Shown: positions 7,048 to 64,000 of the stretch, in pieces
How the letters are laid out: each line of letters opens with the position of its first letter
Numbering within the stretch: the first letter of the stretch is position 1
DNA from: Faecalibacterium longum CLA-AA-H243
Lineage (GTDB): Bacteria; Bacillota; Clostridia; Oscillospirales; Ruminococcaceae
Direction: 5' to 3'
NCBI RefSeq assembly: GCF_020687245.1
Contig: NZ_JAJEQG010000003.1
Span: forward strand, 62,001-126,000
DNA length: 64,000 nucleotides
The notes under the pieces: model-generated
The model's input: only the letters and a program-made list of their open reading frames with translations
What the model was told of the DNA's origin: nothing
Databases searched by the model: none
Program-made: the position numbers and the translations under genes

Positions 7048-8199
7048 TCAGCCCACGACGTAGACGTTGACGTTGATAGCGCCGTTGATGACAGACTCCG
7101 CATAAGTCTCATAGAACAGGTCCACAAGGATGCGGCCATCCTGCACGGCGATGCCGGTGTCGGTGGCTACTGCGTAGCCATAGACGAAGCTGCCGTCGGT
7201 GGAGGTGATATACAGCAGGGTGCCGTAGGGGATGACATCGGGGTCAACGGCCACGGTGCCGTAACCCAGACCCAGACCGGAAGAACCCTTGCCCGACTTG
7301 GAATAATAGCCGGTGGCCTTGCCGGTAAGGACCTTGCTGTAGCTGGCGGGGGCGTTGGTGGTGCCGTCCGGGCCGGTCAGGGGCGAGACGGGCGCACCGG
7401 CGCCATAGGTCTTGACCACATGGTCGGTAGGCTCCACGGTGGTGGTCACATCGGTGACGACGCTGTTTTCCAGCTCGCCGTCCACCCAGCGCTCCCGGGT
7501 GGTGACGGTCTGTTGGCCCTCAGAGCCATGCTGCAGGGTGGTAGCACGGTTGGTGTTGCGGAAGTAGAGGCTGGTATAGACGTACTCCGTGTCGTAGGGG
7601 ACAGCCTGCGTCTCCACCTTGTCCTGATACTCGACGCGGTGGACTTCAATCTTGCTGCCAGCCGTGACCATCGCGCTGAGGGCGGGTTCGGTATAGTCGT
7701 CCCCCTCCAGAGTGATGCCAGCACGTTCCAGAGCATCGGCGACGGTACCCACCACCATCTTGACGGGGTACTCCTGGCCTTCAGCCTCAATGGTGACGCT
7801 GAAGGCGCGTTCGATGTTCAGGGATGCCAGACTGCCGGCAAAGGCAGTGTAATAGACTTCGTCTCCCTCCTCGGCCTCGATGCCGGAAAGGCTCATAACG
7901 CGGGCAGGGTCGCTCTCGGAAGTGAGGACCACCTGCCGCGCACCGTGGGAGTCTGTGACGTAGGTCAGCCGCAGATTCGCGGCGGTCACAGCCAGCGTGA
8001 ACACGAGACACGCAGCCATGACGCAGAACGCCAGCACACGGGATGAGGCTGCACGGGTGCAGCCGGGCAATGCTTTCTTAAATTTGACGGAAGCGATACG
8101 AGACAACTCCTCTCTTTTCAGATTTTGGAATGGACAGCGAGCCTGTATCTCAAGGCCCGTCAGACTGTGCGTAAATGCCCCGCACAGCGGGCGCCGCAA
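7048..8199 (-). CDS. G5 and 3D-domain cell-wall protein (YabE/Rpf-like)
   Basis: A basic N-terminus and one hydrophobic segment (about residues 54-76) suggest a signal anchor. Two DUF348-type ubiquitin-like segments follow (about 80-190). Then comes a G5-like region (about 190-280, VEYQDKVETQAVPYDTEYV and TTVEPTDHVVKTYG). The C-terminus is a 3D domain: ATGYYSK, YGTVAVDPDVIPYGT, ATDTG and DLF, including the family's conserved aspartates. Such proteins are secreted wall-lytic factors related to lytic transglycosylases and resuscitation factors. The start is uncertain: the longest frame begins with TTG at 8199 without a good ribosome site, and AGAGGAG near 8110 is followed by no well-spaced start. 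Its own promoter lies at 8262-8290. Confidence 0.8.
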   Translation of the reverse strand: MRRPLCGAFTHSLTGLEIQARCPFQNLKREELSRIASVKFKKALPGCTRAASSRVLAFCVMAACLVFTLAVTAANLRLTYVTDSHGARQVVLTSESDPARVMSLSGIEAEEGDEVYYTAFAGSLASLNIERAFSVTIEAEGQEYPVKMVVGTVADALERAGITLEGDDYTEPALSAMVTAGSKIEVHRVEYQDKVETQAVPYDTEYVYTSLYFRNTNRATTLQHGSEGQQTVTTRERWVDGELENSVVTDVTTTVEPTDHVVKTYGAGAPVSPLTGPDGTTNAPASYSKVLTGKATGYYSKSGKGSSGLGLGYGTVAVDPDVIPYGTLLYITSTDGSFVYGYAVATDTGIAVQDGRILVDLFYETYAESVINGAINVNVYVVG

Positions 8200-8261
8200 A
8201 AGCGGCTTTTCACTTCACCGTGATGAATTTTATGCGCTGCAACGTGTGTTGAGCGGACGTT

Positions 8262-8290
8262 ATTTTAGCAGACTGAGGCCGTTTTGTCAA
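8262..8290 (-). promoter_or_regulatory. Strong promoter of the G5/3D gene
   Basis: Perfect TTGACA (8285-8290, minus strand), 17-base spacer, TAAAAT (8262-8267). The rest of 8200-8723 is A+T-rich and shows no further gene. Confidence 0.8.
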
Positions 8291-8673
8291 ATCGAAGGTC
8301 AGGCGCTCGTCAATTCCTTCACATAGTTTTTTGTGCATTCTGTACATAGTTTGCTCTCGATTTCATGAAATTCAATGATTTCTCTCCGATTTTTTCGCAA
8401 AAACAAAGTCATACTTGTTCATATATTTTTAACATTTGAGTTAACATTTCCGAGGTGTTTTTTGCAGTATTTCCAGCCCGCTTTGCGACGTCAAACCGGC
8501 CATAACCGGCTTATTTTCGACACAAATCATGGACTGTTTTCTGACTGTTTTCAAGAGAAAAAACGGGGTCTATTTCTCTCCGATTCTCTCCGAAAAAGGC
8601 CGTTTGGCAAAATGCCTAACCCGCCAAATTCTCAATAAAAAAGTATGTACTTCCGCCCACTGCCGTTCTGCGC

Positions 8674-8679
8674 TACAAT
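8674..8679 (+). promoter_or_regulatory. Possible -10 box for the tail-fibre gene
   Basis: TACAAT lies about 45 bases upstream of the start codon. No good -35 hexamer is seen at 16-18 bases (TTCCGC), so this would be a weak or activator-dependent promoter. Confidence 0.35.
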
Positions 8680-8723
8680 CGGGCCAGATGCAAACGCAAA
8701 ACCAAATGAAAGGAGTTTTTACC

Positions 8724-10316
8724 ATGCAGATCAACATCACAGCCCGGGACTTCGGCGGCACAGAATTCCTCGCTCAGCCCCACCGGCTGCATCTGGGCGC
8801 ACAGAAAGCCGAGGGTGTGGACCAGCTGGAATTCAGCCTGCCGGAGCAGTGGAACGGGTGTGTCGTCACCCTCCACATCCGGCACGCGGACGGCACGCTG
8901 GCCGAGCCGCTGGCACTGGACGAAGCAGGCTGCGTCAGCGTGGGCCGGAGCTTTACCGGCTGGGCCAGCGGCGAGTGGATGCTGGCCGCTGCCAACGGCA
9001 ATGGCTACACCGCCTACACCCGTCCCGGCCAGTACGACGTCCACGGCATCCTCCCCACCGAGGGCGGCGGTGAGGAGCTGACGCCCTCGATCTACGAACA
9101 GTTCATCGCCCGGGTGGTGGACAGCGCCAATGCCGCCGCAGAGGCCGCCAAACGTGCCGCCTCCGGCGAGGCAAACGCCAAACAGAGCGCCAGCGAGGCC
9201 GCTTCTTCTGCCCAGCAGACCGCCGCCAGCGCCACCCTGGCCGCAGGCTATGCCGAGCAGGCCGAAGCCGCTGCCGACCGTGCCGCCTCCTATGCCCCCA
9301 CGGAGGGCGCTGTGCTGAGCGTCAACGGCAAGAGCGGTGCCGTCCGGCTGAACGCACTGGACGTCTGGGCCTTGCCCCGCCCTGTCTCACCGAAAGTCGG
9401 CCAGCTGGTGCGGGTGGTGAAGGTCGATGCCTCCACCGGCGCACTGACCGTAGACACCATCAGCACCGACAGCCTCAGCGGGCTGGGCAGCGAAGAAAAA
9501 GAGCTTCTGCTCAAGCTGCTGGGCTCTGTCAGCTACACCGACAGCAGCGCCAAAAATGCCCTTGAGGCCCTCAAAAAACTGTGGGACACCACGCCGCCCA
9601 CTCCCCTGCCCGACCCGGACATCATCCCGGTGGAGAAGGTGACTCTGAGCCAGCACACGCTGGAACTGAGCCGGGGCAGCACTGCCGACCTCAGCGCCTC
9701 CATCGCGCCCCCGGACGCCACCGACCAGACGGTATTGTGGAGCGTTTCGCCGACGAACATCGTCTCGGTGGATGCGGGCCGCGTCACTGCCCTCAAGAAG
9801 GGTTCTGCCGTCGTCACTGCCACCTCCGACAGCAAGAGCGACAGCTGCACCGTCACAGTGACTCCCGCCGTCTACCGCATCGAGACGGCCCACACCGACA
9901 GCGGCGACATCCCCGCGTGGGACACTTATCCCGCCAAGTCCGAGTTCTTCATGCCATTGACTGCTAAGAAAGCGGGCCTGCTGCTCCGCTCGCTGGAATT
10001 CCGCGTCAAGGGCTATATGCCGGGCAAAATGCGCACCGTCCTGCGCAAGTACGGCACCACGACCGCCCTGGCAGACAAGTCCATCGACCTTGTCCGCGGC
10101 TACAACGATGTAGTGCTGGACATGGGCAGCATCGCGCTGGAAAAGGGCGTCGAATACCAGCTCTATTTCGCCGCCGCCAACAACTTCTATCCGCCCTCTG
10201 TCGATTCCTCCTGGGTCGCCGCAAACGACTGCATCGACATTGCACACGGCAGCGCCTACTATGGTGATAACACCACCCTCATCTTCTCGGGTACCGTTGT
10301 GCTGCAGGAGACCTGA
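8724..10316 (+). CDS. Phage tail-fibre/baseplate-like protein with Big_2 domain
   Basis: 530 residues. The N-terminal 120 residues resemble phage upper-baseplate (BppU-type) folds. Residues about 125-190 are an Ala-rich coiled coil (repeats of SANAAAEAAKRAA type). Then comes VLSVNGKSGAVRLNALDV, a motif common in phage tail fibres. A bacterial Ig-like Big_2 domain follows (about 300-375; VEKVTLSQHTLELSRGSTAD and VTALKKGSAVVTATS). The last 150 residues are an unrecognised beta-rich domain, possibly receptor- or glycan-binding. The ATG at 8724 has AAAGGAG 7-8 bases upstream. No capsid, terminase, portal, integrase or other tail genes flank it. Only a holin follows, so it is either a phage relic or a domesticated pair. 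Confidence 0.75.
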   Translation: MQINITARDFGGTEFLAQPHRLHLGAQKAEGVDQLEFSLPEQWNGCVVTLHIRHADGTLAEPLALDEAGCVSVGRSFTGWASGEWMLAAANGNGYTAYTRPGQYDVHGILPTEGGGEELTPSIYEQFIARVVDSANAAAEAAKRAASGEANAKQSASEAASSAQQTAASATLAAGYAEQAEAAADRAASYAPTEGAVLSVNGKSGAVRLNALDVWALPRPVSPKVGQLVRVVKVDASTGALTVDTISTDSLSGLGSEEKELLLKLLGSVSYTDSSAKNALEALKKLWDTTPPTPLPDPDIIPVEKVTLSQHTLELSRGSTADLSASIAPPDATDQTVLWSVSPTNIVSVDAGRVTALKKGSAVVTATSDSKSDSCTVTVTPAVYRIETAHTDSGDIPAWDTYPAKSEFFMPLTAKKAGLLLRSLEFRVKGYMPGKMRTVLRKYGTTTALADKSIDLVRGYNDVVLDMGSIALEKGVEYQLYFAAANNFYPPSVDSSWVAANDCIDIAHGSAYYGDNTTLIFSGTVVLQET

Positions 10317-10361
10317 ACCACACCGAACACATATCCTGAAACAGAAAGAGAGGTACTGACT

Positions 10362-10613
10362 ATGACCCATCACAAAATTTCCGCATCCACTCTGGCCCGC
10401 ACCGCTGCGCTGGCGCTGGCCCTGACCAATCAGGTGCTCAGCGCCGTGGGCAAGCCCATGCTGCCCATCGAGAGCGCCCAGCTGGAACAGCTCATTTCCA
10501 GCGGCCTGACCGTTGCCGCCGCCCTCGCCAGCTGGTGGAACAACAACAGCTTCACCCCTGAGGCCATCGAGGCCGACGACTTCATGACCCGCCTGAAGCA
10601 GCAGAAGCGATAA
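10362..10613 (+). CDS. Phage holin (SPP1/XhlB-like)
   Basis: 83 residues with two hydrophobic segments (about 10-28 and 46-64) joined by a short loop. The conserved LTNQVLSAVGKPMLP and SWWNNNSFT motifs are typical of the SPP1-type holin family, and the tail is charged. Holins permeabilise the membrane to release endolysin in phage lysis. The gene lies 45 bases after the tail-fibre gene with AGAGAGGT before its ATG, so the two are probably one transcript. No endolysin gene is adjacent. Confidence 0.8.
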   Translation: MTHHKISASTLARTAALALALTNQVLSAVGKPMLPIESAQLEQLISSGLTVAAALASWWNNNSFTPEAIEADDFMTRLKQQKR

Positions 10614-10625
10614 ACACTTAAACGA

Positions 10626-10664
10626 ACACAGCGCCCCGGAGCAGTCTGCTCCGGGGCGCTGTGT
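10626..10664. terminator. Strong bidirectional terminator after the holin
   Basis: An 18-base perfect stem, ACACAGCGCCCCGGAGCA, pairs with its complement across a three-base loop. It separates the convergent holin gene and the small membrane protein gene. Confidence 0.85.
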
Positions 10665-10686
10665 TGTGTTTGAAGAAAAGTTTACC

Positions 10687-10872
10687 TCAGGCGTTCCACT
10701 GAACATCCTCTGCGGCCACATGGCCGTCCTGCACACTGATAACAGCGGCGCGGGCATCCATGCCGGATGTCTTTTTGAAAAGGCCCGTGTAGATGGTCAT
10801 GCCAGCCATCAACAGGACAGCCAGTGCAAGGCCGACCAAACGAATCATCATACCGTCAACATTCTCGTTCAT
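10687..10872 (-). CDS. Small single-pass membrane protein, unknown
   Basis: 61 residues starting MNENVDGMMIRLVGLALAV, with one hydrophobic helix (about 10-32), then a short polar C-terminal domain ending in DVQWNA. The start at 10872 is preceded by GGAGAAGG. I do not recognise the family. Its transcript would begin near 11042, giving a leader of about 170 bases with a terminator-like hairpin near its 5' end (see 10989-11077), so expression may be attenuated. Confidence 0.6.
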   Translation of the reverse strand: MNENVDGMMIRLVGLALAVLLMAGMTIYTGLFKKTSGMDARAAVISVQDGHVAAEDVQWNA

Positions 10873-11004
10873 GATACCTTCTCCTTTTCCTCTTTGCGGC
10901 CCGGCAGACACCATTCTGCCGCAGCCCGCATCCCAATTTTCCGCTGCGGACCCCCTCTATCGGCCCGCAGTGATGCATTTCCCAAGACATTCCAAAGAAA
11001 AAAG

Positions 11005-54892: not shown

Positions 54893-56476
54893 TCAGTGCA
54901 GCAGAGAGCTGACCCATGCCCGGGCGGCCGTCTTGGCCTGGAGCTTATTGTACATCTTCAGGGTGGTGTTGTACACCTTCTGGCTCATGGCATTGCTGGC
55001 GTTGGTGGCGGCAGCCTGCTTGGCCTCAAGCGTGTCGGCGGCGGCAACGGCGGCCTTCATATCGGCGTAGTCGGCCATGATCTCCTGCTGGAGCGCGGCA
55101 TAGCTGGCCTTGGCTGCTGCCCGATCCTTTGCGGTGACCTGATTGCCATTGCTGCCGTAGGTCAGCAGGTTGGAGAGGGCGTCACGCACGCCGTAGAAGG
55201 AGTCGGTCCAGTCGTCCGGGTAGGTATAGTAGCGGCCCTTAGCATCCTGATACCAGACGCCCTCGGTGGGCTGCTCGTCGGAGCGGGTGACCTTATGGAC
55301 CGAGACCTTGTAGACGTCTGCGGTGTCGGTGGTCAGCATCGGATAGTAAGGGACGAAGGCGTTGTACACGTCGTCGTCAAAAGCGGTCCACTCGGTAATG
55401 GCGGTGTTCAGATCGCCGGTGGCGCTCACCTGGAACAGATGAGTCTCCACATTGCCCGTCTTGCCGATGGGCTCGGTCTGAAAGAAGTGGATGGAATCCT
55501 CCACCGAGAACTTCTTGGTCAGCTGGATGTTGGAGTAGACCGGGACGATGGCACCGTTCTCGCCGACGTTGCTGATAGCAAAGTCGGTCTCGCTGTAGTT
55601 GTCCTTCGTAAAGGTGTCGGTGCCGTACAGGTAGTTCAGGCCGGCTGCCATGCGGTCCGATGCGATGTCGCCGTTGTAGGAGGCATCCAGATCGATGACA
55701 TTGGCAGCGGCGTCGCCCACAAAAGTACCAGCCTTCTGGGCCACGGAGATCAGGTTGGCAGAGGCCACCACATGGTCGGTGTCATCCAGATCGATCTTGC
55801 CCATAGCGGCGATGTTGGGCTGCATGAAGACCACGCTGGAGGAGAGCTTCAGGGCAAGGTAGGTGTGGCCCGTCAGGTTCTCCACGAACCAGGTCTCGTT
55901 CTGGTCGGCAATGAACACGCCGGAGCCGCCGGCTGCACCGGCGTTGTCGTAGATGGAGGTCAGCAGGGCAACACCCTCGCGGGCCGTGGAAGCTTCGCTC
56001 AGCAGCACCGTGGTGATCTCGGCTTCCTCAATGCCGTTGTCCACATAGGGGTCTACGCTCAGCACGGCGTCGGTGCCGTAGAGAGACTCGGTGGCAGAGA
56101 CCATGACGCCCTTCTCGTTGGTGCCAGCCTCCTCATAGGGGGTGTGCTCGTGGGTGCTGTCGCAGTCCGGGCAGACACCCAGACCGTTGTCGTCCCGGCG
56201 GGCGGTGTAGCGGTAGCTGTCGTGGGTGAAGGTGTAGGTAAAGCCGTAGCATCCCTCGTACACTTCGCCCGTGGTGTGCTTCCCGGCGGGGCTGATGTTG
56301 AACAGCTTGTTGTAATCGTTGGTGCCCAGATCCTCGATCCGGCCAAACATGGTGGTGCCATCCTCGGTGAGGTCGCTGCCGACATAGAGTGCCGTGCAGG
56401 CGAAGGCGGAAGGAACCACGGCAAGCGTCATTGCACAGGCGATGAAAGCCGCAGCAATTTTCTTCTTCAAAGACAT
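54893..56476 (-). CDS. C69-family dipeptidase
   Basis: 527 residues. Signal peptide (LKKKIAAAFIACAMTLAVVPSAFA) is directly followed by CTALYVGSDLTEDGTTMFGR, where the Cys is the catalytic N-terminal nucleophile of the Ntn-type C69 (PepD) family. Further conserved block: NEKGVMVSATESLYG and TWFVENLTGHTYLALKL. It is a secreted or surface peptidase. The ATG at 56476 was chosen because the preceding 18 residues of the longer frame are not hydrophobic and lack a ribosome site; AGAGGGAT is about 12 bases upstream. No operon partners. Confidence 0.9.
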   Translation of the reverse strand: MSLKKKIAAAFIACAMTLAVVPSAFACTALYVGSDLTEDGTTMFGRIEDLGTNDYNKLFNISPAGKHTTGEVYEGCYGFTYTFTHDSYRYTARRDDNGLGVCPDCDSTHEHTPYEEAGTNEKGVMVSATESLYGTDAVLSVDPYVDNGIEEAEITTVLLSEASTAREGVALLTSIYDNAGAAGGSGVFIADQNETWFVENLTGHTYLALKLSSSVVFMQPNIAAMGKIDLDDTDHVVASANLISVAQKAGTFVGDAAANVIDLDASYNGDIASDRMAAGLNYLYGTDTFTKDNYSETDFAISNVGENGAIVPVYSNIQLTKKFSVEDSIHFFQTEPIGKTGNVETHLFQVSATGDLNTAITEWTAFDDDVYNAFVPYYPMLTTDTADVYKVSVHKVTRSDEQPTEGVWYQDAKGRYYTYPDDWTDSFYGVRDALSNLLTYGSNGNQVTAKDRAAAKASYAALQQEIMADYADMKAAVAAADTLEAKQAAATNASNAMSQKVYNTTLKMYNKLQAKTAARAWVSSLLH

Positions 56477-56646
56477 AATAGTATCGATCCCTCTCTTGTT
56501 GATTGTCGGCATTTCGTCGGCAGGTGTCATAATACACCCATTTTAATAAAAATGCAAGTATTTTCCCGAAATTTTAGCATATATTCATTTTTATATGGTA
56601 TATATTCGTACTGCGTTTTTCATCTGCCCCTCCGTGAGCGCAAAAA

Positions 56647-56683
56647 ACCGCCCCGGCTTCCTACTATGGAAACCGGAGCGGTT
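56647..56683 (-). terminator. Terminator of the XRE gene (dispersed CCGCCCCGG family)
   Basis: ACCGCCCCGGCTTCC pairs with GGAAACCGGAGCGGTT with one mismatch; minus strand continues TTTTTTGCG. The gene-free stretch 56477-56749 otherwise shows only A+T-rich sequence. Confidence 0.8.
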
Positions 56684-56749
56684 CGTTTACTTTATGGGTG
56701 CTTTTTCAGGCACTCAATGCCTACCAACTGGCATTCAGTTTTTGAAGTT

Positions 56750-57112
56750 TTAGTCATATCTGTATTTAGAGGACTTTCCGTACACCTTCCGAAGCGATTT
56801 TTTCAGGCTGACCACCGTTTCTTTGATGATCTTTGCCTCATCGGCAGAGCAATCTGCAAGCTGTTCGGTCATCCAGCTGTCGAACACCGGCTTTGCTTTT
56901 TTGATCTCAATGCACAGCAGCTCGTCTGCCGAACAGTCCAGTGCGTTGATGATGTCGATCAGCGTTTTCAGGCTGGGCACGGAGTTGCCTGTTTCGATAT
57001 GACTGATGTGCGTGACCACCACACCGACCTCATTGGCCAGCTGCTCCTGCGTCATGCCCTTTGCAAGGCGGCAGGCACGGATGCGTTTTCCGATGTCGGC
57101 GTAGTCCACCAT
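56750..57112 (-). CDS. XRE-family helix-turn-helix regulator
   Basis: 120 residues. HTH_XRE at residues 6-60 (IGKRIRACRLAKGMTQEQLA, VTHISHIETGNSVPSLKTLI), then a helical C-terminal part. GGAGGGG precedes the ATG, and a promoter is at 57151-57179. A perfect 25-base palindrome lies 20 bases upstream of the -35 box, so autoregulation or control of the neighbouring five-gene operon is possible. Confidence 0.9.
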   Translation of the reverse strand: MVDYADIGKRIRACRLAKGMTQEQLANEVGVVVTHISHIETGNSVPSLKTLIDIINALDCSADELLCIEIKKAKPVFDSWMTEQLADCSADEAKIIKETVVSLKKSLRKVYGKSSKYRYD

Positions 57113-57150
57113 AATACAAGTCCCCTCCGTTTTGTGAAGTGATACTTGTA

Positions 57151-57179
57151 TTGTATGTGCAATCGACCAGGATTGTAAT
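57151..57179 (-). promoter_or_regulatory. Promoter of the XRE gene
   Basis: TTACAA (57174-57179, minus strand), 17-base spacer, TACAAT (57151-57156). Confidence 0.65.
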
Positions 57180-57199
57180 AACCTGAAAGTGCAGTGGAC

Positions 57200-57224
57200 T
57201 TTTGACAGAAAGTTTCTGTCAAAA
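57200..57224. promoter_or_regulatory. Perfect 25-base palindrome
   Basis: TTTTGACAGAAA-G-TTTCTGTCAAAA: twelve-base arms with a one-base centre. It lies between the 90-residue gene and the XRE promoter. It can be an operator; as RNA the one-base loop makes a poor terminator, so an operator is favoured. Confidence 0.7.
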
Positions 57225-57257
57225 TCATTTTTTGCACTTTAGCCCCGGACACAAAAT

Positions 57258-57530
57258 TTATTTTTTCTCTTTCTTTGCACGCAGTCTTGCATTTTCCTGG
57301 TTGATCTTTTCGATTTCTTCGCTGTTGGTCAACCAGCCAAGACCCTTGGAAAGCTCTTTCTTTTTTGCTTCGTTATCACTGATTTTGGAATCAATGAGTG
57401 CAACGCTCGTAGCCTTCATATTGTCAAGTGCAAGCTTTGCACCGCCGCCCAAAAGTGCTGCACCCAAAGAAACCGCTGTCGCAAACAGAGCGCTCTGTTC
57501 TTTTTCCATGTCATTTCTGCCGATACCCAT
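57258..57530 (-). CDS. Small Gly/Ala-rich membrane-associated protein (island operon, gene 5)
   Basis: 90 residues. A short hydrophobic, glycine-zipper-like segment ATAVSLGAALLGGGAKLAL (about 17-35) is followed by a charged helical C-terminus rich in Lys and Glu. AAAGGAG is 10 bases before the ATG. Last gene of the WYL-led operon, 31 bases after its neighbour. Family not recognised. Confidence 0.7.
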   Translation of the reverse strand: MGIGRNDMEKEQSALFATAVSLGAALLGGGAKLALDNMKATSVALIDSKISDNEAKKKELSKGLGWLTNSEEIEKINQENARLRAKKEKK

Positions 57531-57561
57531 ACTGTACTACTCCTTTACTTGTTGTGTTATT

Positions 57562-58533
57562 TTATTCCATTAAAAGAATGGTCCGTCCATTCTCTTCAAT
57601 GTCTTTCCAAAACATATCATCTTCATCTCTACAGTAATTCTGCAGGAGTTTAAGATTTGCACCGATCACCTCATCAAAGAAATTCTGATATTCCCGCTGG
57701 ATATCATCCTGCGGTTCTTTTTTCCAGCGGCCGACCAGGTTTTCCAGCGCAACCAATTCCTGCATAGTCTCAAGCATACCCCGGATTTTTTTCATGTCTC
57801 CGTCCAGTTTTTTCAGCTTGATACTCCGGATAAAACGCGGACCCCACACGATTTTTTTCACATCGCTCACATAAATACGAAGTGCACCTTCAAACCGGTG
57901 GATTGCTTTGATAAACGCATCGTCCGCCTTTTCAAGGTAGGAAACTTGATTCGTTTCATCCTGTGCCCTTTTATAGCGTTCCAGATACGTTTTGCCATCC
58001 ATCAGCCGACTGCTGTAGTCGTTCAGATGTAGATCTTCCAGCAAGTCAAAACGCTCGTTGAAGTGCTCGATCTGTGCGATATGCAGCTCTACCAGAAATT
58101 CCCCCAATTTTTTCGGATTGGTCAGGTCATACATTTCCACCAGTTCCTGCATGGCCTGCTCGCCGCCCTCTTTCAGGTCTCCCCTGTCGTTGATGCTTTC
58201 CGGGCTAAACAGCACATGCAACGCACTTTTTGCCTTTATAAGATCCTTGGTGTGTACTACATTTCCATCGAGATCCTGCGTCCGTGCCATCTTTTCCACA
58301 ACATCAACGGTATCCACCGCCGTTTTTATCTTTTTTTCAAAGTCCCCTTTCGTCATCACGTCTTCTACAACATCTGCGTGTTGTATAAAAATCGACTTCA
58401 ATGCCTCTGCATTCACTGTTTTGCCTGTTTTTTTCTCGTAACTTTCTGCATATTGGTCTACCGCTTTTGAAATCGCCAGCTTCTTTGCCTTATCCAGAAC
58501 ACTTGCCCGACTTTGTTTTTTCTCCACTTTCAC
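57562..58533 (-). CDS. Helical soluble protein of unknown function (island operon, gene 4)
   Basis: 323 residues, no hydrophobic segment, almost entirely predicted helical with many charged residues (KLKKLDGDMKKIRGMLETMQ; SRLMDGKTYLERYKRAQDE). The start is GTG at 58533, about 10 bases after AAAGGA. G+C is low: lines at 58021 and 58321 count 28 and 24 G+C of 60, against 37 of 60 at 55141. No family recognised. 46 bases after the upstream gene. Confidence 0.75.
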   Translation of the reverse strand: MKVEKKQSRASVLDKAKKLAISKAVDQYAESYEKKTGKTVNAEALKSIFIQHADVVEDVMTKGDFEKKIKTAVDTVDVVEKMARTQDLDGNVVHTKDLIKAKSALHVLFSPESINDRGDLKEGGEQAMQELVEMYDLTNPKKLGEFLVELHIAQIEHFNERFDLLEDLHLNDYSSRLMDGKTYLERYKRAQDETNQVSYLEKADDAFIKAIHRFEGALRIYVSDVKKIVWGPRFIRSIKLKKLDGDMKKIRGMLETMQELVALENLVGRWKKEPQDDIQREYQNFFDEVIGANLKLLQNYCRDEDDMFWKDIEENGRTILLME

Positions 58534-58579
58534 GATTCATCGTTCCTTTCAGAATGTTTTATACTATTCATGTCATATG

Positions 58580-60043
58580 TCATCGCAAAACAAATTCTTC
58601 CTCGGAGCACATTGCTGCGCGGAACGCGTCAAAATCTCTATGCTGCAGTGCAAGACCTGTCTGGTCTGCATAGTTCAAAATGGCATATACCGCACGCTCG
58701 TAGTTGGTATCATCATCCGCAAGGTACGCGAAAGCATCCAGCAGGCTGCTCAGTCGGGTACGCTGCTGCTGTTCATATTGCTTCATAAAATCCATCAGTT
58801 GACGGTGATATTCCTGTTCCAACCGCGTTGATTCCTTCAGCAATGCCGTCATCCGATCGTACTCTGCCGCATTCAGCGCTGCCTGCTCCACAATAGCGCG
58901 TGTGCAGGACACCACATAAGCTGCTGCCGTATAGACCGCCATCGGGACAAACGGATTTGCCGTGCCGACCACCAGTCCGAGCGCTTTGGTAAAATAGACC
59001 GTTGCGACCGACTTTACCGTCGTATCTGCCAAAGCCCCCTGCAGCTGCTGCCCGGTGATCTCTCCTTTTGCGTAGGAATAAAGTGCTGCGCCTCCATCTA
59101 TCAGCCCGCCCGCCATGACTGTTGCTGCGGTTGAATCCGAAAGCACCGGAAGTGCCACTTTCCGGCCTCCAAAGCGGATCACCGTGCTAAGCACGCCGGT
59201 CTCGCCACCGCGCAGTGCACCGCTGACGGTATCCGCTTTTACCTCTTCCAACGCATTATCGAGCGTTTTGCGATCCCGCAGTACCTCAAACAAATTCTGT
59301 GTACCGGACACAATGGCTGTGATAACACCGGTTGCCACCGCCATATTCGATGCCGCTGTACCGACCTCCCGCGCCAGCTGCTTTCCTTCAAAGCGAGCCG
59401 CATACTGCCGAACCGCTTGTTGAGAAACTCTGCCATCTGTGCCACGCAGCTTTTGCAGCTCCGCAGTTGTTGTGCCTCCTGATGCAATGCCAGTGGACGG
59501 ATCTGTCAAGCCCTTCTTCATCAAGTTGGATACCGCATTCTCGTAGGCCGTTTTTGAAATCTCACCGTTTTCAGCCATTTTGTGCAGGCAGCTCTCAATG
59601 TCTGCCATCTGGTCTGTTGGTGCAATGCGTTGCATATCCGTATACTTCGGATCTACAAAATTCTGCGCAGCTCGCCAGGCACTGTTATTGTATTTTGCCT
59701 GTCCTTGCCCTACGATTCGGCCATTCCTCTGCATACGGAAGTCATCCGGTGCCGTATGCCCGCCGTATCCTCCCCGACCTGCCGCCAGATCCGTCACTGG
59801 GTTCCGGTCAAAGCGTTCGCCGCAGTTTGCCATATTCGTTTGCAGCTTTGCTGCCTCAATGTACTCAAACAGATTTCCCTTGGACTGCTCAAAGCCTACT
59901 TTTGAAATCTTTCCTGCCTTGTACAAAAGCTCCCTCATAGAGTCAATGGCCGTATCGGTTCCCATTTGTACATTCTGGGAGGCCGCATTGCCCACAAATG
60001 CACCAGCCTGACCTTCCAGATTTTTTTCTTTCCTGCTTCTCAC
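58580..60043 (-). CDS. Protein with possible PD-(D/E)xK-like motif and Gly/Ala membrane segments (island operon, gene 3)
   Basis: 487 residues. In the N-terminal 150 residues, KGNLFEYIEAAKLQTNMAN is followed by HTAPDDFRMQRNGRIVGQGQ and AKYNN. The spacing D-x(n)-QxK with beta-strand-like residues between resembles a PD-(D/E)xK nuclease core with the Q variant. Residues about 215-400 are rich in Gly, Ala and Val (VGTASNMAVATGVITAIVSG-like and AATVMAGGLIDGGAALYSYA) and may insert in the membrane. The C-terminal 80 residues are helical (RQLMDFMKQYEQQQRTRLSSL). GTG start at 60043 with AAGGA 7 bases upstream. Function unknown; the nuclease reading is a hypothesis. Confidence 0.65.
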   Translation of the reverse strand: MRSRKEKNLEGQAGAFVGNAASQNVQMGTDTAIDSMRELLYKAGKISKVGFEQSKGNLFEYIEAAKLQTNMANCGERFDRNPVTDLAAGRGGYGGHTAPDDFRMQRNGRIVGQGQAKYNNSAWRAAQNFVDPKYTDMQRIAPTDQMADIESCLHKMAENGEISKTAYENAVSNLMKKGLTDPSTGIASGGTTTAELQKLRGTDGRVSQQAVRQYAARFEGKQLAREVGTAASNMAVATGVITAIVSGTQNLFEVLRDRKTLDNALEEVKADTVSGALRGGETGVLSTVIRFGGRKVALPVLSDSTAATVMAGGLIDGGAALYSYAKGEITGQQLQGALADTTVKSVATVYFTKALGLVVGTANPFVPMAVYTAAAYVVSCTRAIVEQAALNAAEYDRMTALLKESTRLEQEYHRQLMDFMKQYEQQQRTRLSSLLDAFAYLADDDTNYERAVYAILNYADQTGLALQHRDFDAFRAAMCSEEEFVLR

Positions 60044-60075
60044 AGCTCGATCCTTCTTTCTCCTTTACAGGCGCA

Positions 60076-61143
60076 TCAGAAGCCGTACCTTCCCTGTGCG
60101 AATGCCGGATACACATTCCTTGCGTTCTGCAGAGTTGTCTGTGCTTCCGAAGCCAGTTCCCCGGCCGGTGTCAGAAGCGGTTCTGACAGTACTGAACACA
60201 TAATTTGTGCCATAAGCCATGCCTGATGAATCTTTTTCTGCTCTGCTTCGGTCAGGCTGTTGAAATCGATTTTCTCATCGTCCGAATCGTACAGCATCCT
60301 TTTCTGCTTCTGTCTGGTGCGCTGTTCCATATATTTCATCTCATTTACTACCGGATAAAATGCACTGCGAAAGCGTACCAGAAAGTCCGAATAGTTTTCT
60401 GCAATACTTGCAGTCTTTTTCATAAAATCTGTCATAACAGCCATCTTTTCCACCGCCGTTTCGGCCCGCGCCGCCGTGGCTTCTGCACTGGCCAGATTTT
60501 CATCCGCCTTGGCATTCATGATAAGGCCTGCGGCTGCCAATACCGGCCCGACAACGATGCCGCCGAGAACCAGTGTGCCGCCCGCCATGCCCAGACCGCC
60601 TGCGGTCAATGCACCGCCGCCAAACCATGCCAGCGTTGCATTGGTCGCTGCCACGCCGGACAGACTTGCAATGGCCGTGCCTGTTGATGCAGATGCAAAC
60701 ATCATCGCTCCGCCGTAGGAGGCAATGCCTGCCAGCACTCCGGTGCCAAGAGAAGCAACGCCTGCCCGCGCAATCTCCGTTGCCTTCAAAGCAGCAACTT
60801 CCATATTTTTCAGGTTTTCTGTTCCCTGACGCTTGAGCTTCAGACGTTCATCCCCGGCCACGTCACTTTCCATCCGGACATTCTTGAAGGCTCTGAACGT
60901 ACGGATAAAATCATTCATTTCTTTCGACCAGATATCTACCTTGAGCACTCCCAGCCGTTTCAGGCATTCCGCTGTGCAGGTCCTTTGTTCCTCCAGCATC
61001 TCCCGCGCCTCGTCATAGATATTCTGTGCCTCCGCAACGATCTGCTTTGCGTTTGCATTTTTTGTGTGAGCAGATACACTTTTTACAGCACCGGTGATGC
61101 CGGCCAACGCCGCACCACCCAGCAGGATAAAAGGCACCGCCAT
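60076..61143 (-). CDS. Coiled-coil/Gly-rich membrane protein (island operon, gene 2)
   Basis: 355 residues. An N-terminal hydrophobic segment AVPFILLGGAALAGITGAVK is followed by a coiled-coil-like region (about 25-110, QIVAEAQNIYDEAREMLEEQ). A long Gly/Ala/Thr-rich hydrophobic part (about 125-235) contains several glycine-zipper-like helices (GGALTAGGLGMAGGTLVLGG). A helical C-terminal domain follows. ATG at 61143 has AAAGGAG 9 bases upstream; a longer frame overlaps the WYL gene. I do not recognise a named family. Topology suggests a membrane-active protein. Confidence 0.75.
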   Translation of the reverse strand: MAVPFILLGGAALAGITGAVKSVSAHTKNANAKQIVAEAQNIYDEAREMLEEQRTCTAECLKRLGVLKVDIWSKEMNDFIRTFRAFKNVRMESDVAGDERLKLKRQGTENLKNMEVAALKATEIARAGVASLGTGVLAGIASYGGAMMFASASTGTAIASLSGVAATNATLAWFGGGALTAGGLGMAGGTLVLGGIVVGPVLAAAGLIMNAKADENLASAEATAARAETAVEKMAVMTDFMKKTASIAENYSDFLVRFRSAFYPVVNEMKYMEQRTRQKQKRMLYDSDDEKIDFNSLTEAEQKKIHQAWLMAQIMCSVLSEPLLTPAGELASEAQTTLQNARNVYPAFAQGRYGF

Positions 61144-61169
61144 TTTATTTTTCTCCTTTCCTAATGCGT

Positions 61170-62108
61170 TTATTGTTCTGCCAGTACCCGCACATAGTCT
61201 CCCTGACTCCGCACCCACATTTGGATACCTGTGCCAAACACCTCAGCCTCTATGATCCAGCCCTTCTCCGTCACCTGCAAAACCTTTGCAGTGGGCAGAC
61301 GGTCAAGTACAGATTCCAGACTCGGCCCGGTATACTCAAACCGAATGGTCTGCAACTCGCCGCCGTACATAAACTGGATGCGCTTGCGCATCTCGCCCTC
61401 CTGAAATCGGTCGGTGTACCGCTGTGCAAAGTGTCGGTCGAGGGTTTTGTAATTTTGAATGCGGTCAATACGATAAATCGTCGGGGAATTGTCCTGCGGG
61501 TTCTGGAAGTGTTTGTCCTTGTCGATGCCTTCGATGAACGCCGCCAGATAGAAATAATACTCGCTGAACAGGATGCCCACCGGCTCAATGGTGCGCACAC
61601 GAGTCTCGCCGTCGTGGGTGCGGCAGTAGGTAATTTCCATAACATTGTGATTTTCTACTGCCGTGCCGATCTCCCACAGGCTCTCGATAAACTTCCGGCC
61701 ATGCTGCGGCTCAACGTAATGGAAGCGTTCGTTGCTGATGAGGTCTTTGACCTGATTCAATCGGTCCAGCGGGGTGCACACCTGCACCAGCTTGTCCAGA
61801 ATGGGGAACATTTCCTCCTTGACCATGGAGCGGCTCTCCAGCAGGATCTTGCACACTGCCAGAATCTCGCTGCTGGTGAGGAAGCGGGAAAGCGTGTCAT
61901 CCAGCAGATAGCCGCCCTTTGCGGAGTTGTATAAGATCTCTCGGCGCGGCTCGCTGTCTGCAAAATGATTGCGCAGGGTGTCAAGATCGCGCTGGATGGT
62001 TTTCTCACTGACACCGAAGCGGTCAGCCATCTGCTGTTTGTTCAGCACACCGCCCTGTACCAGCACCTGCTGGATATAGAGTATACGGTCCAATCTACTA
62101 TTACGCAC
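61170..62108 (-). CDS. WYL-domain HTH transcriptional regulator (island operon, gene 1)
   Basis: 312 residues. HTH_11/DeoR-like helix-turn-helix at 5-60 (GGVLNKQQMADRFGVSEKTI), WYL-type sensor domain at about 150-230 (VMEITYCRTHDGETRVRTIE, LFSEYYFYLAAFIEG) and the C-terminal extension (IEAEVFGTGIQMWVRSQGDY). WYL proteins often control defence systems and bind nucleic-acid-like ligands. It leads the five-gene operon with 26 bases to the next gene. GTG start at 62108, 8 bases after AAGGAG. Confidence 0.9.
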   Translation of the reverse strand: MRNSRLDRILYIQQVLVQGGVLNKQQMADRFGVSEKTIQRDLDTLRNHFADSEPRREILYNSAKGGYLLDDTLSRFLTSSEILAVCKILLESRSMVKEEMFPILDKLVQVCTPLDRLNQVKDLISNERFHYVEPQHGRKFIESLWEIGTAVENHNVMEITYCRTHDGETRVRTIEPVGILFSEYYFYLAAFIEGIDKDKHFQNPQDNSPTIYRIDRIQNYKTLDRHFAQRYTDRFQEGEMRKRIQFMYGGELQTIRFEYTGPSLESVLDRLPTAKVLQVTEKGWIIEAEVFGTGIQMWVRSQGDYVRVLAEQ

Positions 62109-62130
62109 AGTTCATTCTCCTTCTCTGCTC

Positions 62131-62159
62131 ATTGTAACACAACACAACTATCGCTGCAA
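62131..62159 (-). promoter_or_regulatory. Promoter of the WYL-led operon
   Basis: TTGCAG (62154-62159, minus strand), 17-base spacer, TACAAT (62131-62136). Upstream, GTGAAG...TTTCAC (about 62170-62196) is an imperfect inverted repeat. Confidence 0.7.
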
Positions 62160-62239
62160 TTCTTTGTGTGAAGTTTTGTCGTTTCACGGAATTACAAAAA
62201 AATTTTTGTCTCTTTTGCACAACCCCAGTATACAAAAAA

Positions 62240-62264
62240 AGATGGACAGATTGCCTGTCCATCT
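62240..62264 (-). terminator. Terminator of the 59-residue gene
   Basis: AGATGGACAG (62240-62249) pairs perfectly with CTGTCCATCT (62255-62264); the minus strand continues with seven T residues. Confidence 0.85.
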
Positions 62265-62273
62265 CCTAAAAAG

Positions 62274-62453
62274 TCAAGGTAGACTATTCTTAAATTGCCA
62301 ACCTCTTTTGAAGCGATAGGCGCTGTTCATCAGTTCATCTGTGATGGTGTAAAGCGCCCGGCGTGGCGAACCATATCCGCCAATCAGCCCAATCACAATC
62401 GCAAGATTCAGCACAAATGCAATGCTCAACAGCACCATCAAAAATTTTTTCAT
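62274..62453 (-). CDS. Small membrane protein of 59 residues
   Basis: It reads MKKFLMVLLSIAFVLNLAIV and continues into IGLIGGYGSPRR, one hydrophobic helix (about 4-26), then a polar tail ending QFKNSLP. AAGGAGAAGAGCGT precedes the ATG, and its own terminator follows directly, which supports a real gene. Function unknown; signal-anchor topology. Confidence 0.65.
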   Translation of the reverse strand: MKKFLMVLLSIAFVLNLAIVIGLIGGYGSPRRALYTITDELMNSAYRFKRGWQFKNSLP

Positions 62454-62556
62454 ACGCTCTTCTCCTTCTGCCTTATGTTTCTATCAACTTTTCTGCTCTC
62501 ATTATACAGATTTGGCTGGACGGTATGGTTGTCCATCCTCCACAAGCAACAAAAAA

Positions 62557-62593
62557 GGAACACGGCATTCTCGTTTTGAATGTCCCGTGTTCC
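62557..62593 (-). terminator. Terminator of the 46-residue gene
   Basis: GGAACACGGCATTC pairs with GAATGTCCCGTGTTCC (bulged); the minus strand continues TTTTTTG. Confidence 0.8.
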
Positions 62594-62631
62594 TTCTGTC
62601 CGCTTTTGCAGCGGCTTCTTTTACATAGAAG

Positions 62632-62772
62632 TCAATCGTTCATTTCGGCATCCTCCCGAATCTGCCGCTTATATTTATAATAGGTATTCCGGGCAAGTCC
62701 AGTCAATTTTATGCAGTCCACATCAGGAATCGGCGGAAACTGCCAGCCTCCCTGTCTTTCTTGCTCCGTCAT
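62632..62772 (-). CDS. 46-residue recombinase-type helix-turn-helix protein or remnant
   Basis: MTEQERQGGWQFPPIPDVDC leads into IKLTGLARNTYYKYKRQIRE, a helix-turn-helix like that at the C-terminus of serine recombinases/resolvases. GAGGATATATAA precedes the ATG and a terminator follows. It could be an excisionase-like small protein or the leftover of a recombinase. It marks the right edge of the G+C-poorer island. Confidence 0.55.
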   Translation of the reverse strand: MTEQERQGGWQFPPIPDVDCIKLTGLARNTYYKYKRQIREDAEMND

Positions 62773-62808
62773 TTATATATCCTCAATTCATTGAATTCTT
62801 GACTAAAC

Positions 62809-62853
62809 CAAAACCCTCCCCGGCAAAACCATTCAGTTTTACCGGGGAGGGTT
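62809..62853 (-). terminator. ppdK terminator
   Basis: AAACCCTCCCCGG pairs with CCGGGGAGGGTTT across an A+T-rich loop; the minus strand continues TTTGG. Reads in both directions. Confidence 0.85.
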
Positions 62854-62910
62854 TATCATACGCTTATCTTCCCATGTTTTGCAGGATTAGTGCATCTTCA
62901 TGCAACAATC

Positions 62911-64000
<1,090 letters not shown>

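What the first reader, a model, noticed from the sequence alone, without database searches (positions are those of the whole stretch)
57200..62772. WYL-led five-gene operon of unrecognised proteins in a G+C-poorer island: candidate undescribed system
Seen: five co-directional genes (61170, 60076, 58580, 57562, 57258) with gaps of only 26-46 bases, each with a good ribosome site, behind one promoter (62131-62159). Only the first has a recognised family (WYL regulator). Genes 2, 3 and 5 have Gly/Ala-rich glycine-zipper-like membrane segments. Gene 3 adds a D...QxK pattern compatible with a PD-(D/E)xK nuclease core. Gene 4 is a soluble helical protein. Sampled G+C is clearly lower than in the flanks, and the edges carry an XRE regulator with a perfect palindrome and a recombinase-type HTH. 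Known: WYL regulators often sit in defence loci. Inference: a membrane-active plus nuclease-like defence or stress cassette.
Basis: partly seen in the sequence, partly recalled or inferred. Interest (0 to 1): 0.85.

Follow-up and report, generated by a model that had tools for sequence, protein, structure and literature searches.

The report
Swappable membrane-nuclease defence cassette
A bacterium carries a small gene cassette, probably an antivirus system, in which one conserved membrane protein is paired with an interchangeable enzyme, and related strains hold quite different cassettes between the same two control genes.

Summary
The five-gene operon is real. Its core is genes 2 and 3. Gene 2 (60076-61143) is a Gly/Ala-rich membrane protein related to PADLOC's candidate PDC-M09A; gene 3 (58580-60043) is a diverged relative of PDC-M09B. 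In 76 of 80 gene-2 loci (13 named phyla) a gene-3-family (71) or PDC-M40B-type (5) partner is present; the other 4 are cut by contig ends. TerB (44/80), CxxCxxCC (34/80) and WYL (17/80) genes accompany the pair. Most gene-3-type proteins share a C-terminal adaptor but swap the front: PD-(D/E)xK-like (window), HNH-like, M48 peptidase with Bunzi's BnzB region, LRAT, or none. Front type follows the gene-2 tree (14 changes; 36 when shuffled). In the genus, five WYL...XRE frames in three genomes (WYL 93-97%, XRE 97-100% identical proteins) enclose five different gene sets; homology stops at the operon's edges. Best reading: a WYL-controlled, membrane-anchored effector system against phage or other mobile DNA, held in an exchangeable regulatory frame. 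The nuclease reading rests on conserved E60, D101, Q115, K117 and on topology; no fold match was found. Genes 4 and 5 have no detected relatives. Function is inferred, not shown. New variant of a known kind.

The parts
61170..62108 (-). WYL-domain transcription regulator (gene 1), right-hand post of the exchange frame
   Evidence: Pfam WYL 9.3e-10 and HTH_DeoR; 93.9-96.8% identical proteins in 4 other frames of the genus
62131..62159 (-). Likely promoter TTGCAG-17-TACAAT of the WYL-led operon
   Evidence: read from sequence; conserved with small changes in five frames; not listed by the consensus scan
62237..62267 (-). Terminator-like hairpin upstream of the promoter, separating the operon from the small membrane gene
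60076..61143 (-). Gene 2: Gly/Ala-rich membrane protein, relative of PADLOC PDC-M09A; the conserved partner
   Evidence: PDLC04407 8.6e-22; relatives and core motif
58580..60043 (-). Gene 3: effector; N-terminal PD-(D/E)xK-like domain, Gly-rich helical middle, C-terminal long-helix adaptor; diverged relative of PDC-M09B
   Evidence: profile homology, alignments, AlphaFold2 models, adaptor profile
57562..58533 (-). Gene 4: 323 aa, no hydrophobic segment; no relatives found; part of the exchanged inner operon
57258..57530 (-). Gene 5: 90-aa protein with one hydrophobic segment; no relatives found; part of the exchanged inner operon
57200..57224 (.). Perfect 12+1+12 palindrome after gene 5 (terminator- or operator-like), found only in this copy of the frame
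56750..57112 (-). XRE-type regulator, left-hand post of the exchange frame
   Evidence: Pfam HTH_3 2.6e-15; 97.5-100% identical proteins in 4 other frames
62274..62453 (-). Small membrane protein of the frame
   Evidence: relatives in the WYL-bearing stretches of G803 and G801
62635..62733 (-). C-terminal remnant (33 residues) of a serine recombinase
56717..62910 (.). Approximate extent of the island that is absent from three related genomes

Best explanation
The operon is a WYL-controlled, membrane-anchored effector system that most likely protects the cell against phages or other incoming DNA. Shown here by comparison: gene 2 (membrane protein) and gene 3 (effector) are an old, stable pair; gene 3 is built from a replaceable front domain and a widely shared C-terminal adaptor; in the host genus the whole inner operon differs between copies of one WYL...XRE frame. 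Inferred: WYL keeps the operon low and releases it when it senses nucleic-acid fragments or nucleotides made during infection or DNA damage; gene 2 and the Gly-rich middle of gene 3 form a membrane complex through the adaptor; when triggered, the PD-(D/E)xK-like front domain cuts DNA (phage DNA, or the cell's own in an abortive response), while gene 2 may also permeabilise the membrane. Genes 4 and 5 are taken to be accessory, trigger or immunity parts of this one variant.
For: Pairing: 71 of 80 gene-2 loci hold a gene-3-family gene and 5 more a PDC-M40B-type gene; the other 4 are cut by contig ends. Defence links: gene 2 hits PDC-M09A; the partners of the two strongest PDC-M09A loci hit PDC-M09B at 4.9e-194 and 6.8e-178; some relatives carry the BnzB region of Bunzi (up to 9.2e-121), and a table lists TerB as a domain of the defence systems Shango and Bunzi (PMC10952713, one passage seen). 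Front-domain swapping onto one adaptor. Conserved E60, D101, Q115, K117. Different operons in one WYL/XRE frame, one of them with a HerA-type ATPase. Patchy distribution: gene 2 in 5 of 31 genomes of the genus; three empty sites. WYL factors are reported with CBASS (PMC9122588), BREX (PMC9122589) and diverse defence islands (PMC9122601): titles and starts of abstracts in a listing only.
Against: No functional test exists for this pair in what I searched, and PDCs are described as unvalidated for the most part (PMC12988326, passages). P0003 itself does not reach any PDC-M09B model. No fold match supports the nuclease: PDB none at E <= 0.001, viral library none at E <= 0.001, solved-sequence profile search nothing below 0.28. 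The window lacks TerB and CxxCxxCC; 62 of 80 relatives have at least one of them. No recognisable phage sensor. Pfam did not confirm the HNH motifs in the two such proteins scanned. The defence-neighbourhood comparison (129 PADLOC models in 120 flank genes against 35 in 119 control genes) counts models, not genes, and is only suggestive.
Confidence: 0.6

Rival explanations
1. A stress-response system of the Ter type: the pair, with TerB and CxxCxxCC metal-binding partners in relatives, senses envelope or metal stress and is not primarily antiviral.
For: TerB in 44 of 80 and CxxCxxCC in 34 of 80 loci (Pfam on two examples of each); membrane-type components; WYL factors also serve DNA-damage responses (PMC11804915 and PMC10693628, starts of abstracts in a listing).
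Against: The window copy lacks TerB and CxxCxxCC. Swapped enzyme domains, patchy presence and cassette exchange look like conflict systems. TerB itself is listed in phage defence (Shango, Bunzi).
Confidence: 0.18
2. A toxin system aimed at rival bacteria or at the cell itself (polymorphic-toxin or toxin-antitoxin-like), with gene 4 or gene 5 as immunity protein.
For: Several kinds of enzyme domain on a shared C-terminal part; small orphan genes downstream.
Against: No secretion or repeat domain was found in genes 2 or 3. The variable part is N-terminal, whereas polymorphic toxins vary at the C-terminus (recalled). The downstream genes are not conserved with the pair: genes 4 and 5 have no convincing relative in the other fetched loci.
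Confidence: 0.12
3. An exclusion module of a mobile element (plasmid or integrative element) that blocks competing elements instead of phages.
For: 34 plasmid records carry gene-2 relatives; a serine recombinase stands at two of the frames; no match in phage records.
Against: Clustering of 830 neighbour ORFs showed no conserved transfer-gene family next to the pair; an integrase-like cluster occurred in 6 of 93 loci (label mine from sequence).
Confidence: 0.1

Closest known systems
PDC-M09 (PADLOC phage defence candidate, genes PDC-M09A and PDC-M09B)
   Same: Gene 2 matches PDC-M09A; gene 3 joins the PDC-M09B family by profile; same two-gene unit; the canonical B proteins show the same G..E, D and QxK spacing by eye in the alignment
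   Different: P0003 does not itself reach a PDC-M09B model; WYL-led, with two extra orphan genes
Bunzi (BnzA, BnzB; Millman et al. 2022, recalled, cited in PMC10952713)
   Same: Relatives of gene 3, one of them in the same genus behind a near-identical WYL, carry the BnzB region; TerB occurs in both
   Different: The window gene 3 has no BnzB match; the BnzA model was met in 2 of 15 related genomes, weakly and outside the locus
PDC-M40 (PADLOC candidate, PDC-M40B)
   Same: A gene-2 relative is the neighbour of PDC-M40B-type proteins: direct model hits in a Klebsiella plasmid and in G793 of the host genus; five more by similarity to the plasmid protein, among them Acetobacter and Pseudomonas
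   Different: Other effector family with an HNH-like motif; adaptor not detected in it
CapW- and BrxR-type WYL regulators of CBASS and BREX (PMC9122588, PMC9122589, PMC9122601)
   Same: HTH-WYL regulator first in a defence-like operon
   Different: Here WYL is paired with an XRE gene and the genes between them differ as a block
LeoABC dynamin-like proteins (PADLOC LeoA, LeoBC)
   Same: Weak LeoBC match of a canonical gene-2 relative (4.8e-5); GTPases with LeoBC similarity in frame C
   Different: No GTPase in the window cassette

Membership tests
PDC-M09 (PADLOC) | A component matches a PDC-M09A model | tested here: met
   PDLC04407 8.6e-22, PDLC04406 4.2e-19
PDC-M09 (PADLOC) | Neighbouring component matches a PDC-M09B model directly | tested here: not met
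   P0003: no PDC-M09B model listed at E <= 1
PDC-M09 (PADLOC) | Neighbour belongs to the same protein family as PDC-M09B | tested here: met
   Profile built through intermediates joins P0003 with L036/L037 (PDC-M09B 4.9e-194, 6.8e-178) and L033 (9.4e-21)
PDC-M09 (PADLOC) | A and B adjacent on one strand | tested here: met
   gap of 32 bases
Bunzi | BnzB present | tested here: not met
   no BnzB match for P0001-P0007; only in relatives
Bunzi | BnzA present | tested here: not met
   no BnzA match for P0001-P0007
PDC-M40 | PDC-M40B partner | tested here: not met
PD-(D/E)xK nuclease superfamily | Acidic residues before, and (D/E/Q)xK in, the core strands (definition recalled) | tested here: met
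   E60 and D101 invariant, Q115 and K117 at 90% or more in 32 sequences
PD-(D/E)xK nuclease superfamily | alpha-beta-beta-beta-alpha-beta core (definition recalled) | tested here: inconclusive
   model pLDDT 92.8: H51-73, E102-106, E109-116, H122-129, E138-140; first core strand not seen
PD-(D/E)xK nuclease superfamily | Structural match to a known member | tested here: not met
   no PDB match at E <= 0.001; a phage restriction endonuclease appears only at E 1.9 in the viral library
PD-(D/E)xK nuclease superfamily | DNA cleavage | not testable with these tools
   bench assay needed
WYL regulators | N-terminal HTH and WYL domain above Pfam cut-offs | tested here: met
   WYL 38.8 (21.8), HTH_DeoR 23.8 (21)
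Anti-phage defence system | Protection in a phage assay | not testable with these tools
   bench assay needed

The most novel reading that the evidence does not exclude
PDC-M09, PDC-M40 and BnzB-bearing loci are versions of one widespread immune platform: one membrane protein (gene 2) plus a docking effector whose warhead (nuclease, HNH, metallopeptidase, LRAT) is swapped onto a common adaptor. In the host genus the platform sits in a WYL/XRE regulatory socket into which whole, unrelated immune operons (PD-(D/E)xK pair, HNH pair, BnzB with two GTPases, dynamin-like NTPases, HerA with Sel1 repeats) are exchanged by recombination in the two regulator genes, so that every new cassette arrives under ready-made control.
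Probability: 0.4. Interest if true: 0.82.

Novelty: new variant of a known kind. Interest (0 to 1): 0.68.

Why it matters
It gives a pair that a database lists only as candidate genes an anatomy (conserved membrane partner, adaptor, exchangeable enzyme) and links three separately listed entries (PDC-M09, PDC-M40, BnzB). The five frames in one genus are a natural experiment on how immune-like operons are replaced while their regulation is kept, which makes the question of how a newly acquired defence is kept from harming its host directly testable. The front-domain swaps predict that one trigger can fire different enzymes.

Tried and rejected
Housekeeping role: no Pfam or NCBIfam family above cut-off and no convincing PHROG for genes 2-5. 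Phage origin: no relatives of gene 2 in 50,697 phage records or in viral contigs, none of gene 4 in viral contigs. RNA element: none in Rfam at gathering score for 56000-64000. Palindrome as XRE operator or swap site: rejected, absent around the other four XRE copies. Gene 4 as a diverged TerB: its best hit among fetched loci was a TerB-type gene at E 0.073, but profile tests gave no support. Gene 5 as CxxCxxCC: it has no cysteine. BnzA as the missing partner: 2 of 15 genomes, weak (7.9e-11 and 1.2e-4), and neither hit overlaps the gene-2 locus. Fold searches of gene 3: nothing at E <= 0.001 in PDB, full length or N-domain; best viral hit, a giant-virus J-domain protein, E 1.5e-3, probability 1.00, not interpretable. 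Solved-structure sequence searches: best E 0.28 for the gene-3 domain, 0.023 for gene 2 (its C-terminal helical part). First genome-collection scan with P0003 alone: 32 stretches, no relative.

Gene calls were made by a simple longest-ORF rule; it wrongly dropped gene 2 of L064, which in fact overlaps its gene 3, so 830 neighbour ORFs come from 93 of 94 loci. The gene-3 family members were found with the gene-3 profile, so their shared C-terminus is partly by selection (control: 1 of 830 neighbour ORFs). Effector tags HNH, M48 and LRAT were given by short motifs in a script; Pfam confirmed M48 in the two proteins scanned and LRAT in the one scanned, but did not confirm HNH in the two scanned. 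The eleven proteins tagged 'other' include the two canonical PDC-M09B proteins and three M40B-type ones; for the tree I relabelled those five and left the other six out, and also left out the gene 2 rows of L041 and L044. The names ppdK and C69 dipeptidase are recalled from sequence and come from no call. The species of the window is not told by any search.


Full report
WHAT WAS CHECKED. The five minus-strand genes are at the stated places with gaps of 26, 32, 46 and 31 bases. The stretch is poorer in G+C (0.46-0.53) than most of the window. Gene 1 is a WYL regulator by Pfam. Genes 3-5 have no family in Pfam, NCBIfam, PADLOC or PHROGs at a convincing score, but gene 2 matches PADLOC's PDC-M09A at 8.6e-22. 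PDC means phage defence candidate; such entries are described as coming from a guilt-by-embedding approach and as mostly unvalidated (PMC11514479 passages; PMC12988326 passages). 'PDC-M09' occurs in none of the papers searched.

THE CORE IS GENES 2 AND 3. Within 398 genomes of the phylum, 28 have a PDC-M09A match at E <= 0.001 and 15 at E <= 1e-6 (the second number is my count from its table). An iterated profile from the fetched loci joined gene 3 to a protein next to gene 2 in many of them, and two of these partners match PDC-M09B at 4.9e-194 and 6.8e-178. P0003 alone finds only itself and one distant relative in 396 genomes of its family, so the link needs intermediates. In these 80 loci a gene-3-family gene is directly adjacent on the same strand in 41, one gene away in 27, elsewhere in the stretch in 3, and not found in 9; one of the 3, L064, is really adjacent. 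Five of the nine have a PDC-M40B-type neighbour, judged by similarity (1e-146 or better) to the Klebsiella plasmid protein that hits the PDC-M40B model. In the last four (L068, L085, L118, L130) the contig ends 0.1-0.9 kb from gene 2. The loci come from 13 named phyla, plus one record without a phylum. The closest relatives of the window pair are in an uncultured Clostridia genome and in Clostridium cuniculi (gene 2 51-52% identical; gene 3 46 and 41%).

ACCESSORY GENES. Clustering 830 neighbouring ORFs of 93 loci gave three large families: TerB-like in 47 loci, CxxCxxCC (YkgJ) in 40, WYL in 22 (Pfam TerB 2.2e-8 and 2.4e-7, CxxCxxCC 2.4e-6 and 1.5e-6 in two examples each). Within the 80-locus set: TerB 44, CxxCxxCC 34, either 62, WYL 17. 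The window copy has WYL but neither TerB nor CxxCxxCC. Its genes 4 and 5 found no relative: gene 4 in 392 family genomes (own genome only), plasmids and viral contigs; both in the other fetched loci (best E 0.073 for gene 4, none at E <= 1 for gene 5). A possible tie of gene 4 to TerB failed.

SWAPPED FRONT DOMAINS. Of 93 effector-type proteins tagged, 47 are PD-(D/E)xK-like (the window type), 14 carry a BnzB-like region (8 of these with an M48 HExxH motif), 5 and 4 carry two HNH-like motifs, 2 an LRAT-like motif, 10 are short, and 11 were untagged. Pfam confirms Peptidase_M48 (3.5e-14, 2.2e-10) and LRAT (4.4e-19) in the ones scanned, and does not confirm HNH in the two scanned. PADLOC's BnzB matches L076 (1e-116), L081 (2.8e-43), L091 (1.4e-15) and L214 (9.2e-121). 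A profile of the last 130 residues of the PD-(D/E)xK-type proteins hits 37 of the 46 others at E <= 0.01 and 1 of 830 neighbour ORFs; all 7 M40B-type proteins, L037 and the 464-aa L214 protein are not hit, although the last has a PDC-M09B match in its C-terminal part (9.4e-9). On a gene-2 tree of 95 rows, 85 of them labelled, the types need 14 changes; shuffled labels need 36.2 on average, none of 200 as few. So partner type and gene 2 travel together, with repeated replacement. That tree is a quick one with long branches and 37 of 92 inner branches weak.

IS GENE 3 A NUCLEASE? In 32 sequences of the window type G56, E60, D101 and Y134 are invariant, and Q115, K117 and an Asn column (Gln68 in the window) are at 90% or more. 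The N-terminal domain is predicted with pLDDT 92.8 and pTM 0.85: a helix with E60, two strands (102-106, 109-116) with D101 and Q115-x-K117 at their ends, a helix, a short strand. This fits a PD-(D/E)xK core less one strand. Against it, Foldseek finds no PDB chain at E <= 0.001 for the domain or the whole protein, and the best viral model (E 1.5e-3) is a giant-virus J-domain protein. I hold the nuclease reading at about 0.6. The full model drew weak, non-significant matches to TIM23 and a complex I membrane subunit (E 1.1-1.4).

THE WYL/XRE FRAME. Genes that I take for ppdK and a C69 dipeptidase stand next to each other in three of the 19 related genomes whose ppdK flank was fetched; there the 56717-62910 block is absent. 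In the other 16 the dipeptidase gene was not within the 10-12 kb fetched, so they say nothing. Among 31 genomes of the genus, WYL proteins 94-96% identical to gene 1 occur only in G801 (two) and G803 (two), besides two of 51-53% in G793 and G815; XRE proteins 98-100% identical to the window's occur only in G801 and G803 (two each), besides one of 42% in G236. The five close pairs stand on one strand each (thresholds 1e-30 and 1e-20). The five frames hold: A (window) gene 2, PD-(D/E)xK effector, gene 4, gene 5; B (G803) HNH-like effector and a gene 2 28% identical to the window's; C (G803) a PDC-M09A-type gene 2 (1.6e-52), a BnzB-type effector and two GTPases with DUF697; D (G801) a 108-aa protein, two P-loop proteins (weak dynamin matches) and a coiled-coil protein (Apolipoprotein, below Pfam's cut-off); E (G801) a 1280-aa Sel1-repeat protein, a HerA/DUF87 ATPase and two small proteins. 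DNA homology to the window ends at 57199-57203 beyond XRE and at 61191-61201 inside the end of WYL in all four. WYL genes are 86-91% identical in DNA but 93-97% in protein; XRE 93-97% and 97.5-100%, so both posts look to be under purifying selection. Frames B and E keep a 230-aa serine recombinase ORF (Pfam Resolvase for E); the window keeps only its last 33 residues. A further genome, G793, has a 53% WYL with a PDC-M40B-type effector (1.2e-43), a CxxCxxCC-family gene (1.6e-36 to the cluster's profile) and gene 2.

DEFENCE SURROUNDINGS. Nearest non-module genes of the 80 loci (120 of 136 eligible) matched 129 PADLOC models at E <= 1e-15; the 25 shown, with 2 members each, are type I restriction, PD-T4-6, JukA, AbiL and MADS models. 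In the control, 119 of 237 genes from 18 arbitrary stretches of the phylum, 35 models matched; the 25 shown, with 1 member each, include RecD-like, RtcR-like, DrmD, DndA, SspA and several PDC-S models. The comparison counts models and not genes, and the control is narrower in taxonomy, so it is a hint only.

MECHANISM. Shown: pairing, swapping, framing, conserved active-site-like residues, membrane-type segments. Inferred: WYL represses and responds to nucleic-acid fragments or nucleotides, as predicted for the family (PMC4012209, passages); gene 2 and gene 3 form a membrane complex through the adaptor; the front domain attacks DNA on infection. Rivals are a Ter-type stress response, a toxin system, and an exclusion module.

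NOVELTY. The pair is a variant of an already listed candidate. I found no paper that describes the front-domain swapping, the union of PDC-M09, PDC-M40 and BnzB-bearing loci, or the WYL/XRE socket; the searches were made, judged from their listings and from passages of six papers, in an open-licence library without most subscription journals and, as it states, without a bioRxiv holding.

Noticed in passing
   Followed up: partly
   Followed up: partly
L081:4818-7235, L126:4698-7082 and six more loci: M48 metallopeptidase motif in front of a BnzB-like region and the adaptor, about 800 aa, next to TerB and gene 2 (Pfam run on two of the eight).
   Followed up: partly
L060:9059-10159 and L092:9066-10109: LRAT-type domain fused to the gene-3 adaptor (Pfam for the first, motif only for the second).
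   Followed up: partly
L034 (Klebsiella quasipneumoniae plasmid) 7589-10985: PDC-M40B-type operon with gene 2 and a CxxCxxCC gene behind an IS3 element; the annotated WYL gene is only 294 bases long. 25 of 34 plasmid records with gene-2 relatives are Klebsiella.
   Followed up: no
   Followed up: no
Sulfolobus acidocaldarius control genome: The PDC-M09A model rings in this archaeon, so the family may reach archaea.
   Followed up: no
model m12033979aa7f, gene 3 residues 1-188: Best structural match in the viral library is a giant-virus J-domain protein (Bodo saltans virus, E 1.5e-3, probability 1.00).
   Followed up: no
window 56643-56716: A short GC-rich hairpin stretch recurs in related genomes beside different genes, like a dispersed terminator repeat.
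   Followed up: no
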